From NCBI GenBank assembly GCA_009602725.1, contig WELB01000388.1:1-39640 (forward strand): a DNA stretch of 39,640 nt. Reading direction: 5' to 3'. This DNA comes from Spirogloea muscicola. Lineage: Eukaryota > Streptophyta > Zygnematophyceae > Spirogloeales > Spirogloeaceae. Both the position numbers and the translations under genes were made by a program. This document shows positions 62 through 35,965 of the stretch, in pieces (position 1 is the first letter of the stretch; each line of letters begins with the position of its first letter). The notes beneath the pieces are model-generated. The model was given only the letters and a program-made list of their open reading frames with translations. It had not been told where the DNA came from and ran no database searches.

Positions 62-125
62 TGGAGCAGCGCCATAGAGGGTAGGGGCTGGGGATGGCCA
101 GCCCAAAAAGACTGGACAGGGTCCA
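62..125 (-). repeat. Two-hairpin repeat, copy H1
   Basis: On the minus strand this reads as a short T-rich lead followed by a 7-bp hairpin (GGGCTGG at 85-91 pairs with CCAGCCC at 98-104) and then a CCCCTACCCTC-type second half. It is one of about twelve dispersed copies in the window, listed as H1 to H12. It belongs to the subfamily whose second half reads CAGCCCCTATCCTC. No gene overlaps it. Confidence 0.7.
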
Positions 126-326: not shown

Positions 327-399
327 GACCGCGTGGCCTAATGGATAAGGCGTTCGCCTCCGGAGCGAGAGATTGCGGGTTCGAGTCCCGCCGGGGTCG
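327..399 (+). tRNA. tRNA-Arg (anticodon CCG)
   Basis: The 73-nt sequence folds as a standard class I tRNA. The acceptor stem is GACCGCG with CGGGGTC (one G-G mismatch at pair 5-68), the D stem is GCC/GGC, the anticodon stem is TTCGC/GCGAG with loop CTCCGGA, and the T stem is GCGGG/CCCGC with loop TTCGAGT. The discriminator base is G. Anticodon CCG reads the Arg codon CGG, which suits the GC-rich first exons nearby. There is no intron. A run of five T (411-415) lies 12 nt downstream and would serve as a Pol III terminator. The mismatch could mean a slightly decayed copy, but the A-box and B-box regions are intact. Confidence 0.95.
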
Positions 400-15589: not shown

Positions 15590-16440
15590 GGCCCTCGCCG
15601 CCATCGGACGAGCTACTTCCCGCCACCTGGAGAGCACCGGGGTGATGCCCGTCCGAACTCCGCAAAGGGGTCCCTCGGACGAGGCGTGTCGATCTGGTTG
15701 GCGTCCCCCTGCGAGGTGGCAAGCGGCTCCTCATGGACGTCGTCCTAACCGACAGCTTCCGGACGAAGGGACCCGTAACTTCTGAGACCGGCTATGCTGT
15801 GAAGGCGGCCGAACAGACGAAGTTGCACAAGTACAAGGACCACCCGGCGGGTGATACCTTTTTACCCCCTGGCCGTGGACATCCATGGGTGTTACGGGGG
15901 TCGGTGATCCTCGTTACTTCCGCTGCTGGCATCTCAAGCTGACCAGCGGCGCCGGGAACAGGGTGCAGCCCTTCCGGTGGCCTTGTCCATTCTTTTGGGC
16001 TGGCCTTTCCCAGCCACCAGTCAATCTGGCCGCGCTTTCTTCCGGTGGCTCGGTGCCTTTGGGTCTTGTGTCCTGCTACCGTCTGCGATTGTCTAAGTCC
16101 CTACAGCGGTCCCAAGCGCTTGCTTTGCACCGCCGTGCCGGTCGCGCCCTTGCAGCAGCCTCTGGCTAGCGCAGCGGGGTTGCTCCTCCCCTCAGCTCAC
16201 CTGACTTCCTACCGCGCTCTAAGTCAGGCCTCCGGCTTTCGTGGCGGCGCTCCAGCTCCCCAAGTTAGCTTGTCAGATTTGTTTGTGCTCACCCGTGGGT
16301 ACTAATGTCATCTTAGGTACCTTAGATTAGGTCTCCGTATTATGTAGCATTGTTTAGTCTGCACTCGACTCTGCCTGAACAATGTATTGGCTTGAATTGG
16401 CCTCCCTTTCAATTCATGCGCCCCGCGCGCCTTCTCTCCC
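15590..16440 (+). mobile_element. 5'-truncated LINE, ORF2 C-terminus and 3' UTR
   Basis: Frame-shifted pieces encode the C-terminal domain of a LINE ORF2: ESTGVMPV-like, VDLVGVP-like, GKRLLMDVVLTDSFRTKG, TGYAVKAAEQTKLHKYKDH, and the ending LSDLFVLTRGY before a stop. The 3' UTR includes CACCCGTGGGTACTAATG and TTGAATTGGCCTCCCTTTCA and ends near GCGCCCCGCGCGCCTTCTCT. The reverse transcriptase and endonuclease are absent. Frameshifts and a 58-bp hairpin insertion (15981-16038) show that it is dead. Confidence 0.88.
15971..16048 (+). mobile_element. 58-bp hairpin element insertion (H3) with 10-bp target duplication
   Basis: Inside the LINE, a 58-bp copy of the hairpin repeat (15981-16038) is flanked by identical CTTCCGGTGG at 15971-15980 and 16039-16048. 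The related LINE at about 25340-25366 runs GCAGCCCTTCCCGGTGGCTC without interruption and so shows the empty site. The insert has the TTTTGGGCTGGCC core, a GGGCTGG/CCAGCC stem and a second small CCAG/CTGG stem. Confidence 0.85.
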
Positions 16441-20770: not shown

Positions 20771-21366
20771 GTACTGGCTGTCGTTGATACTGACTGATGG
20801 GAGTCCTCGTGTGCTAAGGATGCGTTTGTGGAAATGTAGCTACGTGCCCAGCTTCCACAGAAGGGAAGCTGCTGCACACATCAAGAGTCCGAGAGAAGGT
20901 GTCTCCCCCTTCCGGGAAGTGTTCTGGAAAATGTTTGTCGCCAGCAATGAGGCCTATACAAGCAAGCAAAACGGAGTACCCCACACGCACTTAATGACAC
21001 CACTTGGACATCGAACCAGAAATGTGCAGGCCATAGAATCTGTGCAGCTGTCAAAGCAGAGTGCAGAAGAGACAGAAAAGAGTGGGAATTTAGGCGCAAA
21101 GAAAGCAATAGTCACCCATTACGGGTGACTGCCTGTAACAATTTAGGCACGCAAGCAATGGTCCTGAATGAATGCGATGTGCAAGAGGTCCAGTGTACTG
21201 CAGGATGCTACAGAGCGAGCAAGCCCTCAACACGACCACTTCAGGATGGCGCCAGCAAACTGGAGGCTGGTACAGCGAGCAGCTGCGATCAGACGACTAT
21301 GTCAACATATCTGCTGCGAGGCAGCACCCGCGGCAAAAACTTATTCAAGGCTACTTCCAGGAGGCG

Positions 21367-21405
21367 GTGGCTGTTGAAAGGCCAGCCCAAAAGGACTGGA
21401 CTGGG
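21367..21405 (-). repeat. Two-hairpin repeat, partial copy H4
   Basis: The minus strand reads CCAGTCCAGTCCTTTTGGGC followed by TGGCCTTTCAACAGCCACC, so the lead and first hairpin are present with a weakened stem. The second half is absent or diverged. Confidence 0.6.
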
Positions 21406-22335: not shown

Positions 22336-22339
22336 AGAA

Positions 22340-22398
22340 TGGCACTCCCAATGAGGGCAAGGGCTGTGAAAAGCCAGCCCGGAAAAAGTTGACAAAAG
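22340..22398 (-). repeat. Two-hairpin repeat, copy H6, at a LINE 5' breakpoint
   Basis: The minus strand reads CCGGGCTGGCTTTTCACAGC then CCTTGCCCTCATTGGGAG, forming two successive small hairpins. It lies directly 5' of the truncated LINE 22335-21880 in the same orientation, with GCTATAAAGAA at the join. The same join motif occurs beside H9. Confidence 0.75.
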
Positions 22399-22502
22399 CT
22401 CGAAGGGGCCGAAAATTGCTTAGCAGCTACGAAGGGGCCTGAAGAAGCTATGTCAGAACGGGGAGAGGATGGAGGGGGGGGTAAAAGGCGGGGTAAAAAC
22501 AA

Positions 22503-22630
22503 CAGCGCTTCCAAATTGACTGGTGGCTGTGAGAGGCCAGCCCAAAAGCATGGACAAGGTCGGGAGGAAGAAAAATCGCCCATTGAGGATAGGGGCTGGA
22601 AATGCCAGCCCATAAAGAATGTACGAGAAG
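22503..22630 (-). repeat. Two-hairpin repeats H7 and H8 in tandem
   Basis: Read on the minus strand, H8 (22630-22566) has TATGGGCTGGCATTTCCAGC and CCCTATCCTCAATGGGCGA. It is followed by H7 (22560-22503) with CTTTTGGGCTGGCCTCTCAC and AGCCACCAGTCAATTTGG. The two copies belong to the two different second-half subfamilies yet sit head to tail. Confidence 0.8.
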
Positions 22631-23180: not shown

Positions 23181-24190
23181 CGTGTGTTAGAAAGAAATGT
23201 AGGCCAAATGGCCAGGTACAAAGGCAAGCACATGTAAAGATCTACATAACCTAGAGCAGATTGACCCGCTCAATAACCACGGGTCAAAACATAAAGGTCA
23301 CTACTCGATGCATGAATGCTAGATGCCAGGAACGGAGCCCTTCTGCCACCTACTAGAGCTCGCCCAGCTTTCTGGTGCAAGGCACTAGCCTGAGCACGCT
23401 GCAAACAGGCCGAAACTCGTCGTCGCAAGAGCGACAGATATGCAGCTGGCAAGCCCATCTCAGCCGGAAACACATCTGCACGTCGAGTGTAGCCTAGATT
23501 GGCAATGTTTTGAAGCAGTGTGGAAGCGAGGACCCAGACAGCCAGACAGCCAAAGATGTCGATTGCAGCTGGCAGGAGTTGATCGCATTGGGGGTAAGCG
23601 GAGTAATGCCGCAGTTTTCTTTGCTCTGCTCCGCCCACTGCGTGCCCAGCAATGTGTGTCGATGCTGGGCATTTATATGCCTCCGTAACATCAACGTCGA
23701 CCAGGGCCCGTGGTCCTCCACCAGGTTGCACGCCCACAATGTCAAGTGTGCGGCGATGATGACGTCCCTGGGCGTCCGTGGTGATAGGCATGATATTGTT
23801 GACTTCCACGACCGCACGGTAGCCGGCGTCGCGCATCAAGCCCGCCAGGGCATCGCGAAGGAGGTTGTGAATGCCCACCACTTCTGGTCCAGTGGGGCAT
23901 CTCAGCATGTGAGTGGCGAGCACAGCACCATCTGCACGGAAGCCGCACTCGCACTGGCGCACCCCAATCAGGCAATTAGGTGGGAGGCCGAGGAAGAGTT
24001 GAAAACGGAAGCGATCGGGAGCTCGCCAGAACGCGAGGGCGCCACTGAGGCGGAGTTCCGATGGCCATCGGGGAGGCGTCCGCCCACTCCTGGCAGAGCT
24101 CCCCAGCCTTGGGGACTCTCAGTTGGCAGTGGCCATTTTGACCAGGAGTGTGGCACAGCGGCCGTGCCTACCTCCTGCTCACGGTCCCAC
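23181..24190 (-). mobile_element. 5'-truncated LINE with Cys/His C-terminal domain
   Basis: On the minus strand a 230-codon frame (23962-23270) encodes a CECGF...THMLRC zinc-knuckle-like motif, HNLLRDALAGLMRDAGYRAV, RRTLDIVGVQPGGGPRALVD, VDVTEAYKC, then STHIAGHAVGGAEQRKLRHY and ends LYVLTRGY. This is the C-terminal domain following the reverse transcriptase in LINE ORF2 proteins. Upstream, in other frames, the piece extends to about 24190. Its last 178 bp are about 97% identical to 39463-39640. Confidence 0.88.
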
Positions 24191-25660
24191 CGTCGGTGAG
24201 CTTGGATACTATCTATGCATCCATTGATGTTAAGCTTCAGCAATGCTTTGCTGATCTGATTGCTCACCCACTCCTAGAGCAGTCTCCAGCAGCACTGGTG
24301 CAATGTACGCTGCCCATACGCCACGGTGGGCTTGGTTGTCGCCCCTTGGTCCGCTTGTGCAGACCAGCGTACCTTGGCTGCTGGGCTTAGGGTTTTAGGG
24401 ACGAAGCCACTTGATGGCTCAAGTGGCTTCGTCCATATCTGGACGATTCCTCCTTAAGCAACAACGTGTATTGGCGCCTCACATCAGTAACGTGGTTCAG
24501 GGGAAGTCTGCCTTTCCAAGTGACTCTCAAAGCATGCCAACAGGACCTCTTCGCCGCACACCCGCCTCTGGTGTATGAGCCTTAGTTTTGCTGCCTGGGC
24601 TGACGTTTTTGATGTCAAGGCTCAATTGCGGTTTGCCGTGCTGCAGACGAGCAACCACTGGAGCATCTCCGGAGTCTCCTCCAAGGGGATGCTCGAGGCC
24701 AGGCTCGGCTCCTATCTGTTTCGTCTCTGGGAGCGTCTGAGTGGCTCCGCGCTTTGCCTTTGCATGCGGGCTTGCGGATGGAAAATGCTTAGTTTTGCGA
24801 TGCTATGCGCCGCCGCCTTGGCTTACCATCCCGGTGCTTGGCAGGGGTGACCTAATGTGAATATGGGCTTATTGAGCATGATGCATTGCTCATGGGTGAC
24901 CACATGCTCAGGTGTGCCAGAGGCAGTGAGCGCACGGGCTCCCACAACCCCCTACGTGACGCCATGTATGGCATCGTCAAGGAGGCGGGATATCAAGTGG
25001 CGTTGGAGAGCACCGGGGTGATGCCCGTCCAACTCCGCAACGGGGTCTCTCAGACGAGGCGTGTCGATCTGGTTGGCGTCCCATGGGAGCTGGCAAGCGG
25101 CTCCTCATGGACGTCGTCCTAACTGACAGCTTCCGGACGAAGGGCCCCAGTGCTTCTGAGACCGGCTATGCCGTGAAGGTGGCCAAACAGAATAAGTTGC
25201 ACAAGTACAAGGACCACCCGGCGGGTGATACCTTTTACCCCCTGGCCGTGGACATCCATAAGTATTACGGGGGTCGGTGGTCCTCGTTGCTTTCGCTGCT
25301 GGCCTCTCAAGCTGACCAGCGGCACCGGGAAGAGGGTGCAGCCCTTCCCGGTGGCTCGGTGCCTTTGGGTCTTGTTTCCTGCTACCGACTGCGTCTATTC
25401 ATGTGCCTACAGCGGTCCCAGGCGATTGCTTTGCAAAGCCGGGCTGGTCGCACCCTTGCAGCAGCCTCTGGTTTGCGCAGCGGGGTTACTCTTCCTCCCC
25501 TCAGCTCATCTGACTTCCTACTGCTGACACGGGGGCATTGAGGGCGCCCTGTCTGCCTAGCCTTTGGCTCCGTCATGAACACCTGTATGCATCTGGCTGG
25601 CAGTCTACAGCCGATTCTATAATATCAGCAGCCGCATGCTTCCTGGCACATACTTCTCCT
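24190..25660 (+). mobile_element. LINE ORF2 C-terminal half (degenerate) with 3' UTR
   Basis: This is the longest LINE piece in the window. It starts in the thumb/post-RT region (QCTLPIRHGGLGCRPLVRLC, RPAYLGCWA) and continues through shifted frames with GDHMLRCARGS, HNPLRDAMYGIVKEAGYQVA, RRVDLVGVP, GKRLLMDVVLTDSFRTKG, DHPAGDTFYPLAVDIHKYYG, LQRSQAIALQSRAGRTLAAA and the terminus FLLLTRGH before a stop at 25541. Several stops and frameshifts show that it is inactive. A perfect 16-bp-stem hairpin interrupts it at 24399-24434. The tail stops just before the GC-rich leader of the next gene. Confidence 0.9.
24399..24434. repeat. Perfect 16-bp inverted repeat with 4-nt loop
   Basis: GGACGAAGCCACTTGA (24399-24414) is followed by TGGC and then by its exact reverse complement (24419-24434). 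It lies in a decayed LINE ORF2 and encodes no recognisable motif there. Confidence 0.9.
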
Positions 25661-28257: not shown

Positions 28258-28325
28258 GAAGTGGCTCTCTCAAAAGGGGCAAGGGCTGTGAGCAGCCAGC
28301 CCGAAAGTTGAGTTGTCGACAAGGT
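28258..28325 (-). repeat. Two-hairpin repeat, copy H9, at a LINE 5' breakpoint
   Basis: On the minus strand it reads TTTCGGGCTGGCTGCTCACA then GCCCTTGCCCCTTTTGAGAG. It closely parallels H6 in sequence and in position relative to the LINE tail. Confidence 0.75.
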
Positions 28326-33683: not shown

Positions 33684-33738
33684 TCGTTCCATTGGGCTGG
33701 CGTCTCACAACCACCAGTCAATCTGGCCGCGCTTTCTA
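33684..33738 (+). repeat. Two-hairpin repeat, copy H10
   Basis: CATTGGGCTGGCGTCTCACA then ACCACCAGTCAATCTGGCCG and CGCTTTC match the B subfamily seen in H3 and H7. A second GGCCAGCCC follows in opposite orientation at about 33750. Confidence 0.7.
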
Positions 33739-33934: not shown

Positions 33935-34235
33935 AAACGAAGGCCTTAGACAAGAGAAGGCGTGCGGTGCTCATAGTTGGTAGGGAGGCCAAGAGGAGCC
34001 CATGTACTGCTATGCAAAGGCAAAGCAACGCGGCTTTACGCACCAGTTCCCTAGGCTAAAAGGTGCTAAGGCAAGAGAGAAGGCGCGCGGGGCGCATGAA
34101 TTGAAAGGGAGGCCAATTCAAGCCAATACATTGTTCAGGCAGAGTCGAGTGCAGACTAAACAATGCTACATAATACGGAGACCTAATCTAAGGTACCTAA
34201 GATGACATTAGTACCCACGGGTGAGCACAAACAAA
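33935..34235 (-). mobile_element. 5'-truncated LINE 3' UTR, fused to hairpin H11
   Basis: The minus strand from 34230 matches the plus strand from about 16270 over roughly 160 bp: TTTGTGCTCACCCGTGGGTA, then GGTACCTTAGATTAGGTCTC and TTGAATTGGCCTCCCTTTCA. It begins just after the LINE stop codon region. A hairpin copy joins its 5' end at about 34236. Confidence 0.88.
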
Positions 34236-34237
34236 GG

Positions 34238-34305
34238 AAGAGCTCCTATGGAAGATAGGGGCTGGGAAAGGCCAGCCCCAAAAAAGTGGACAGGGTCCGA
34301 AGAGC
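34238..34305 (-). repeat. Two-hairpin repeat, copy H11, at a LINE 5' breakpoint
   Basis: The minus strand reads CCTGTCCACTTTTTTGGGGC, TGGCCTTTCCCAGCCCCTAT and CTTCCATAGGAGC, a well-preserved A-subfamily copy. It lies immediately 5' of the truncated LINE tail 34230-33935 in the same orientation. Confidence 0.8.
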
Positions 34306-35689: not shown

Positions 35690-35965
35690 TTCACTGGTGG
35701 GTACTGATGTCCCTCTTCAGCCGTGCTTTTGCCCATATTTCATAGCCACTCTTAGCCTAGCACGTTGCTTTGTGTAGCCCCAATCTCTGCAAGTCCCTCA
35801 CATGCCTTTCACATGAACAGTGTATTGGCTCGGGCTGGCCTGCCCTGTGCGTCAGCCCCTTCGAATCTTGTTCATTCTTTTTGGGCTGGCCATTCCCAGC
35901 CCCTATCCTCAAAGGGCGAGCACTTCTTCCTGTGTTACATATGCAACGCGCGCCTTCTCATCCGC
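35690..35965 (+). mobile_element. LINE 3'-tail fragment containing hairpin H12
   Basis: It begins with CACTGGTGGGTACTGATGTC, continues with a CATGAACAGTGTATTGGCTC stretch and ends near GCAACGCGCGCCTTCTC, the usual tail order. A hairpin repeat interrupts it at about 35865-35930. Confidence 0.7.
35865..35930 (+). repeat. Two-hairpin repeat, copy H12
   Basis: CTTGTTCATTCTTTTTGGGC, TGGCCATTCCCAGCCCCTAT and CCTCAAAGGGCGAGC make a near-consensus A-subfamily copy with GGGCTGG/CCAGCCC and CCCT/AGGG stems. It is embedded between the body and the last bases of a LINE tail. Confidence 0.8.

What the first reader, a model, noticed from the sequence alone, without database searches (positions are those of the whole stretch)
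15971..16048. A 58-bp hairpin sequence is a mobile element: filled site with 10-bp target duplication and a matching empty site
Within the LINE at 15590-16440 a 58-bp insert is bounded by identical CTTCCGGTGG. The homologous LINE at about 25340-25366 runs straight through with only one copy of this sequence. This filled/empty pair inside one window is direct evidence of insertion. At 58 bp it is shorter than nearly all known transposable elements and encodes nothing. About twelve relatives occur in 39 kb.
Basis: seen in the sequence. Interest (0 to 1): 0.85.

Follow-up and report, generated by a model that had tools for sequence, protein, structure and literature searches.

The report
Tail fragment of a LINE retrotransposon
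The 58-base hairpin is a real insertion, but it is the last few dozen bases of a large copy-and-paste element whose copying stopped almost at once, not a new kind of tiny mobile element.

Summary
In detail: 58 bases (15981-16038) lie between exact 10-bp repeats, and 40 of 40 scored copies of the host repeat, the 25.3-kb one included, are empty. The interpretation changes. The 58 bases are the 3' end of a LINE. Its terminal 25-mer has 730 exact genome matches (reversed control 0). Among the first 100 listed, aligned at that end, 5' ends form a ladder from 28 to at least 585 nt, median 82.5. In 18 of 26 ORF-end matches the tail follows within 190 nt; two such open frames, 1517 and 1521 codons, have reverse transcriptase and restriction-like-endonuclease motifs. 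The window's 'relatives' match the same two-hairpin tail; for another tail type, 5 copies sit right behind related LINE ORFs. Four of 14 copies under 47 nt, lacking part of the first hairpin, still show repeats of 6-8 nt (about one expected), so the 58-mer is not the mobile unit. Best explanation: target-primed reverse transcription with extreme 5' truncation. Mildly notable: very short copies, a tail shared across families, insertion beside older tails.

The parts
15971..15980 (+). left copy of the 10-bp target-site duplication CTTCCGGTGG
15981..16038 (+). 58-nt 5'-truncated LINE copy: the last 58 nt of the LINE 3'UTR
15998..16015 (+). first stem-loop (SL1, GGCUGG/CCAGCC), nearly invariant in sequence among tails
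16017..16029 (+). second stem-loop (SL2, CCAG-UCAAU-CUGG), the only helix with paired changes on both sides
16039..16048 (+). right copy of the target-site duplication
25250..25450 (+). homologous host repeat with the empty site (single CTTCCCGGTGG at 25344-25354)
24843..24975 (+). empty site for another insertion of the same family (C1:1329236, locus L049); the joined filled flanks have 12 nt more, tail letters included
35866..35926 (+). LINE tail of another type (CCCCTATCCTCAAAGGGCGAG)
   Evidence: model seed
34235..34295 (-). LINE tail of another type
   Evidence: model seed
22569..22628 (-). LINE tail about 96 nt after a LINE ORF end, 63.6% identical in protein to the parent LINE
   Evidence: model seed
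22501..22559 (-). tail of the finding's own type, directly behind the preceding tail
   Evidence: model seed
22337..22397 (-). LINE tail (CAGCCCTTGCCC type)
   Evidence: model seed
63..121 (-). LINE tail
   Evidence: model seed
28259..28321 (-). LINE tail
   Evidence: model seed
21347..21405 (-). LINE tail
   Evidence: model seed
33685..33737 (+). LINE tail, 5' part degraded
   Evidence: not a seed
23273..24118 (-). C-terminal ORF piece of a related LINE in the window (CxC..HxxxC and D-X14-D motifs, ends RGY*)
   Evidence: no Pfam match

Best explanation
The 58-bp insert is a severely 5'-truncated copy of a non-LTR retrotransposon (LINE). [quoted passage not shown] copies aligned at the 3' end have many 5' ends, a minority have clear short target duplications, and empty sites exist. 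Inferred: the LINE protein binds the two-hairpin tail of its RNA, nicks the target with its restriction-like endonuclease, primes reverse transcription at that end and usually stops within the first tens to hundreds of nucleotides. The stub is then joined, with a duplication of about 0-10 bp in most cases seen, and cannot move again. The hairpins are conserved because they are the loading signal on the RNA, not because the 58-mer moves by itself.
For: 5' truncation ladder, 28 to at least 585 nt, in 100 copies aligned at the 3' end. Of 26 matches to the LINE ORF end, 18 have the same tail within 190 nt; two of these loci have open frames with RVT_1. Duplications of at least 6 nt in 19 of 100 copies against 2.5% of shuffled pairs; with 7 rows dropped as duplicates or array units and wider tolerance, at least 8 nt in 10 of 93 against 0.67%. 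Empty sites: 40 of 40 scored host copies and three further filled/empty pairs. Copies of 28, 33, 36 and 37 nt lack part of SL1 yet have exact repeats of 8, 7, 6 and 6 nt (4 of 14 copies under 47 nt, about 1 expected). One other tail type stands 96-114 nt after ORF ends of related LINEs (5 of 53 matches held, protein identity 63.6-73%).
Against: No duplication of 6 nt or more was found for 70 of 93 copies; L109 and L116 look like insertions with little or none, and L106 has a 25-nt repeat. The sample is the first 100 of 730 listed matches (contigs C1-C11), chosen by an exact 3' 25-mer, so the 3' end is fixed by choice. 8 of 26 ORF-end matches have no tail of this type in the next 190 nt. Covariation is modest and confined to SL2. 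Recognition of the tail by the protein is not tested.
Confidence: 0.95

Rival explanations
1. A self-contained 58-bp hairpin transposon (MITE-like or double-hairpin element) moved in trans by an unknown enzyme.
For: Two small hairpins, a perfect 10-bp duplication and an empty site at the window copy. 8 of 41 copies of the first set (7 of 40 fetched rows, and the window copy) begin at the same CCTTG.
Against: 5' ends are spread over hundreds of bases; in the sample chosen by the 3' end only 4 of 100 copies are 58-60 nt by alignment; no terminal inverted repeats; copies without a whole SL1 have flanking repeats; the sequence continues into a LINE ORF.
Confidence: 0.02
2. A SINE: a short non-autonomous RNA with its own head, borrowing the LINE tail.
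For: The same tail structure occurs behind different upstream sequences.
Against: Long copies lead into LINE 3'UTR and ORF; I saw no other recurring head in the 100 copies (by eye). Rfam found only a tRNA in the window, none at the hairpin. SINEs elsewhere in the genome are not excluded.
Confidence: 0.03
3. The segment was lost by deletion between repeats in the 25-kb copy, the filled state being ancestral.
For: Direct repeats can mediate deletion (general knowledge).
Against: 40 of 40 scored host copies are empty; the inserted sequence belongs elsewhere, at the 3' end of a LINE.
Confidence: 0.01

Closest known systems
5'-truncated LINE copies made by target-primed reverse transcription
   Same: common 3' end, variable 5' end, short duplications, empty sites, autonomous-looking parent with RT
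   Different: copies are very short (25 of 93 at most 60 nt; that this is unusual is recalled, not compared here); the tail ends in GCGCTT and pyrimidines rather than poly-A
Stringent-type LINE 3' tails such as UnaL2, ZfL2, SART1 (PMC4176376: abstract; PMC5135761: passages)
   Same: a conserved stem-loop at the very 3' end of the LINE RNA; probably the RT recognition signal
   Different: two adjacent small hairpins here; SL1 conserved mainly as sequence; recognition not tested
R2 and its 43-nt two-stem 'R2 tag' (PMC10499050: passages)
   Same: N-terminal finger motifs, RT and C-terminal restriction-like endonuclease motifs in one frame; two stems of the 3'UTR suffice for R2 in vitro
   Different: copies lie in many contexts, not at one 28S site; no alignment of the two tails was tried; clade not assigned
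Utopia/NeSL/HERO restriction-like-endonuclease LINEs (PMC4640811: passages)
   Same: order of zinc fingers, RT, zinc finger and endonuclease; HERO contains many non-specific families
   Different: no RT phylogeny made; U2 targeting not examined
Mitochondrial double-hairpin elements (search listing only; otherwise recalled)
   Same: short, two hairpins, apparently mobile
   Different: those are described as elements of mitochondrial DNA; this is a LINE end on contigs of a 153-Mb genome

Membership tests
5'-truncated LINE copy | common 3' end, variable 5' end | tested here: met
   100 copies aligned at the 3' end; lengths 28 to at least 585 nt; the 3' end was fixed by the search pattern
5'-truncated LINE copy | parent element with RT carrying the same 3' end | tested here: met
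   L140 (1517 codons, RVT_1 E=2.3e-10), L139 (1521 codons, E=1.2e-14); frames measured from the previous stop
5'-truncated LINE copy | target duplications and empty sites | tested here: met
   only a minority of copies show a clear duplication
Restriction-like-endonuclease LINE | D-X12-14-D core and KX2KY motif downstream of RT | tested here: met
   RRADLVASALGGGPRLIADV and KELKY/KERKY in L139 and L140; KX2KY from PMC5678591; the D spacing is recalled; the window's C-terminal piece has the D motif but no KX2KY. Motifs only; the fold prediction failed
Restriction-like-endonuclease LINE | CCHC knuckle CX2-3CX7-8HX4C before the endonuclease | tested here: inconclusive
   strict pattern (PMC5678591) absent in 3 of 3 proteins; a CX1CX11-12HX3C motif stands at that place
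Restriction-like-endonuclease LINE | no apurinic-type endonuclease | tested here: met
   no such Pfam family at E<=0.1 in two frames; a divergent one is not excluded
R2 clade | insertion at one site of 28S rDNA | tested here: not met
   copies lie in many different contexts
Stringent-type LINE | conserved stem-loop at the 3' end | tested here: met
Stringent-type LINE | RT requires that stem-loop | not testable with these tools
   needs an activity assay
MITE / hairpin transposon | both ends fixed, terminal inverted repeats | tested here: not met
SINE | own head with internal promoter, recurring with this tail | tested here: not met
   ladder leads into LINE UTR and ORF; the genome was not searched for other SINEs

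The most novel reading that the evidence does not exclude
The terminal two-hairpin module (about 45 nt) is a natural, complete loading tag for a restriction-like-endonuclease LINE enzyme, the wild counterpart of the engineered 43-nt R2 tag. It is kept across families whose protein ends are only about 63-73% identical, so enzymes may mobilise one another's RNAs, and new copies land preferentially in or just behind older tails, building same-orientation chains of stubs.
Probability: 0.3. Interest if true: 0.6.

Novelty: new member of a known kind. Interest (0 to 1): 0.33.

Why it matters
It removes a claimed new class of 58-bp transposon and shows that many 'mystery hairpins' in this genome are LINE stubs, a number of them so short that repeat annotation would probably miss them (inference). 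The stubs are also a natural record of where the enzyme stops and how ends are joined, and the shared tail offers a compact candidate tag for in vitro target-primed reverse transcription.

Tried and rejected
Rejected: stand-alone hairpin element, SINE, deletion in the 25-kb copy (see rivals). A dinoflagellate origin was considered; the 21-nt spliced leader (recalled) has no exact match. Green-type chlorophyll a/b proteins are encoded, so a photosynthetic eukaryote of the green lineage, or one with a green plastid, is likely; the species is not known. Single-sequence folding of the RNA is not decisive (z -0.19 to -2.43 for four tails), and RNAalifold's covariation term is only -0.13 kcal/mol. 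Covariation counts: 12 tails, 7 cells changed on both sides against 2.4 shuffled, but 3 such pairs against 1.6 (55 of 500 shuffles reach it); 84 distinct rows fitted to the model, 35 cells against 15.8, 3 pairs against 2.8 (326 of 500); all of it in SL2. SL1 hardly varies and so says nothing about pairing. A preferred 5' start was noticed: 8 of 100 copies have length 35-36 (two of them, L062 and L081, are near-duplicates), partly where an older tail ends in CTT; it looks like microhomology but was not tested. Structure prediction of the window's LINE C-terminus failed (mean pLDDT 35.6), so no fold search was made. phmmer against solved structures gave an R2 protein at E=0.0017 for L139, above the usual 0.001, and none for L140. 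One of the 13 rows of alignment A1 turned out, on checking, to be pieced together by eye from two loci and to occur nowhere in the sequence held; I repeated the alignment, pair count, profile search and window model without it, with the same 13 window matches; still contain that row.

Full report
OBSERVATION. The window carries CTTCCGGTGG at 15971-15980 and 16039-16048 with 58 nt between. The homologous repeat at 25.3 kb has one such site, spelled CTTCCCGGTGG. A 201-bp query over this empty site found 40 full-length places of 40 scored, the query itself included; all are 196-201 bp long and so lack the insert (901 candidates, 861 not scored). The filled state is therefore most likely the derived one.

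COPIES. The 78-bp query matched 42 places in the 153-Mb genome, 40 of them over the whole core (659 candidates, 40 scored). I fetched 38 regions. Of the 40 full-core rows in them, 33 continue 5' with shared letters and 7 begin at CCTTG, as the window copy does. To avoid choosing by the 5' side I searched the terminal 25-mer: 375 forward and 355 reverse exact matches, none for the reversed control. The first 100 listed (contigs C1-C11) were fetched in 92 stretches and aligned at the 25-mer. The 5' ends form a ladder: 28 to 209 nt, the limit of the first consensus, with 11 copies at that limit; median 82.5; 26 of 100 at most 60 nt; 60 of 100 at most 100 nt. Against the ORF-bearing L140 the longest reach the fetched limit of 585 nt. 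Ends come from local alignment and may be off by a few bases. After dropping five rows as near-duplicates and the remaining rows of the tandem array L052, 93 copies remain: 25 are at most 60 nt, 58 at most 100 nt.

TARGET DUPLICATIONS. Exact repeats of at least 6 nt at the two junctions occur in 19 of 100 copies against 2.5% of shuffled pairings, of at least 7 nt in 13 against 0.8%. With wider tolerance on the 93 copies: at least 6 nt in 23 against 6.5%, at least 7 nt in 14 against 1.9%, at least 8 nt in 10 against 0.7%; 70 of 93 have none of 6 nt. One copy, L106, has a 25-nt repeat. Joined flanks of 98 copies were compared with the sequence then held: L049's empty site is in the window itself at 24843-24975 (12 nt extra in the joined filled flanks, tail letters included); L109 matches two window copies with 1-2 nt difference, and L116 matches L156 without a gap at 85% identity, i.e. 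little or no duplication. Other matches involve older tails or duplicated loci and were not used. Copies of 28 (L051), 33 (L113), 36 (L061) and 37 nt (L059) lack at least part of SL1 yet have repeats of 8, 7, 6 and 6 nt: 4 of 14 copies under 47 nt, where the shuffled rate gives about 1. By the histogram, 13 of 100 copies are at most 42 nt, too short for a whole SL1. So the hairpin is not needed in the DNA copy.

PARENT. A 112-aa ORF end taken from a long copy had 18,642 first-look candidates, of which 150 were scored (candidate counts are rough). In the loci fetched around such matches and two RT loci, 26 match rows were examined: 18 show the tail within 190 nt after the ORF end; 8 do not: one place present in two loci, one that leaves the family, one running into N, and four matches of other families at 39-73% identity, one of which is followed by another tail type. 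In L140 SL1 begins about 75 nt after the stop codon, in L139 about 80 (counted by me). L140 and L139 have open frames of 1517 and 1521 codons with RVT_1 at residues 792-991 and 795-996, two N-terminal C2HC-type finger motifs, YADD (L139) or CADD (L140), a C-C-H-C motif, R-x-x-D...D and KX2KY. KX2KY as the catalytic motif of restriction-like-endonuclease LINEs is from PMC5678591 (passages). One solved R2 protein matches L139's RT region weakly (E=0.0017); L140 has no such hit. The knuckle spacing differs from the published one, so I call the parent a LINE with restriction-like-endonuclease motifs and assign no clade.

RELATIVES. Tails from window and loci give a consensus of two adjacent hairpins (repeated without one faulty row). 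The model of 12 true tails finds 13 tails in the window at E<=0.05, 9 of them its own seeds; the earlier 13-row model gave the same 13, and 89 in 32 chosen sources at E<=0.01. Of 53 matches of the CAGCCCCT type in the sequence held, 10 have a LINE C-terminus within 420 nt upstream; in 5 of these (L039, L085, L055, L114 and the window) it lies 96-114 nt before the hairpin and is 63.6-73% identical to L139's; the other five lie farther off or are nested. Of 12 of the CAGCCCTTGCC type 5 have one, only L149 close by (20 nt, 75%); of 10 of the CAGCCACCGC type none; of 164 of the finding's type 71. So the tail is shared by at least two LINE families; for the third and fourth types this is inferred from likeness. 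SL1 is almost invariant; SL2 shows paired changes in three of four pairs. That is support, not proof, of the structure, since rows are related and the structure came from the same rows.

CLUSTERING. With a DNA profile of the 12 tails, 23 of 100 copies (21 of 97 without the L052 array) lie within about 15 nt of another tail; 12 of the 14 on the 5' side have the same orientation (24 with the 13-row profile). A random point would do so in about 1.5% at the window's tail density and 7.6% at that of the fetched loci. Insertion into pyrimidine-rich tails, or template jumping from one RNA to another as reported for R2 (search listing; a passage in PMC10499050), could both do this; I could not separate them.

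MECHANISM. Shown: insertion, common 3' end, sliding 5' end, duplications in a minority, relatives with long open frames. Inferred: tail recognition, nicking, priming at the 3' end and early termination. [quoted passage not shown] the two hairpins here could be the same kind of signal. PMC4176376 (abstract) and PMC5135761 (passages) describe stem-loop recognition in other LINEs.

NOVELTY. A search of the paper library for non-LTR retrotransposon, green alga and restriction-like endonuclease found no paper with all three terms; related queries listed nothing that I recognised as this family. The library covers only open-licence papers, so this is weak evidence. Truncated LINE copies and 3' hairpins are well known; the families are probably new members.

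Noticed in passing
window 327-399 (+): A tRNA gene (Rfam RF00005, 60.9 bits).
   Followed up: no
window 22501-22628 (-): Two LINE tails in tandem, the first about 96 nt behind the ORF end of a related LINE, the second of the finding's own type.
   Followed up: partly
L052 (C1:1708136-1709178): Tandem array of the LINE 3' end, three units 164 nt apart, next to a run of N.
   Followed up: no
L044, L061, L072, L087, L097: Copies of 35-36 nt starting in the SL1 loop directly after an older tail of the same orientation; suggests microhomology joining or template jumping.
   Followed up: partly
L134 4872-5810: Very long simple repeat translating as (RE)n/(SL)n near a LINE copy.
   Followed up: no
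L157 644-695 (+): A weak LINE-tail match (29.5 bits) about 0.8 kb from a light-harvesting protein exon.
   Followed up: no
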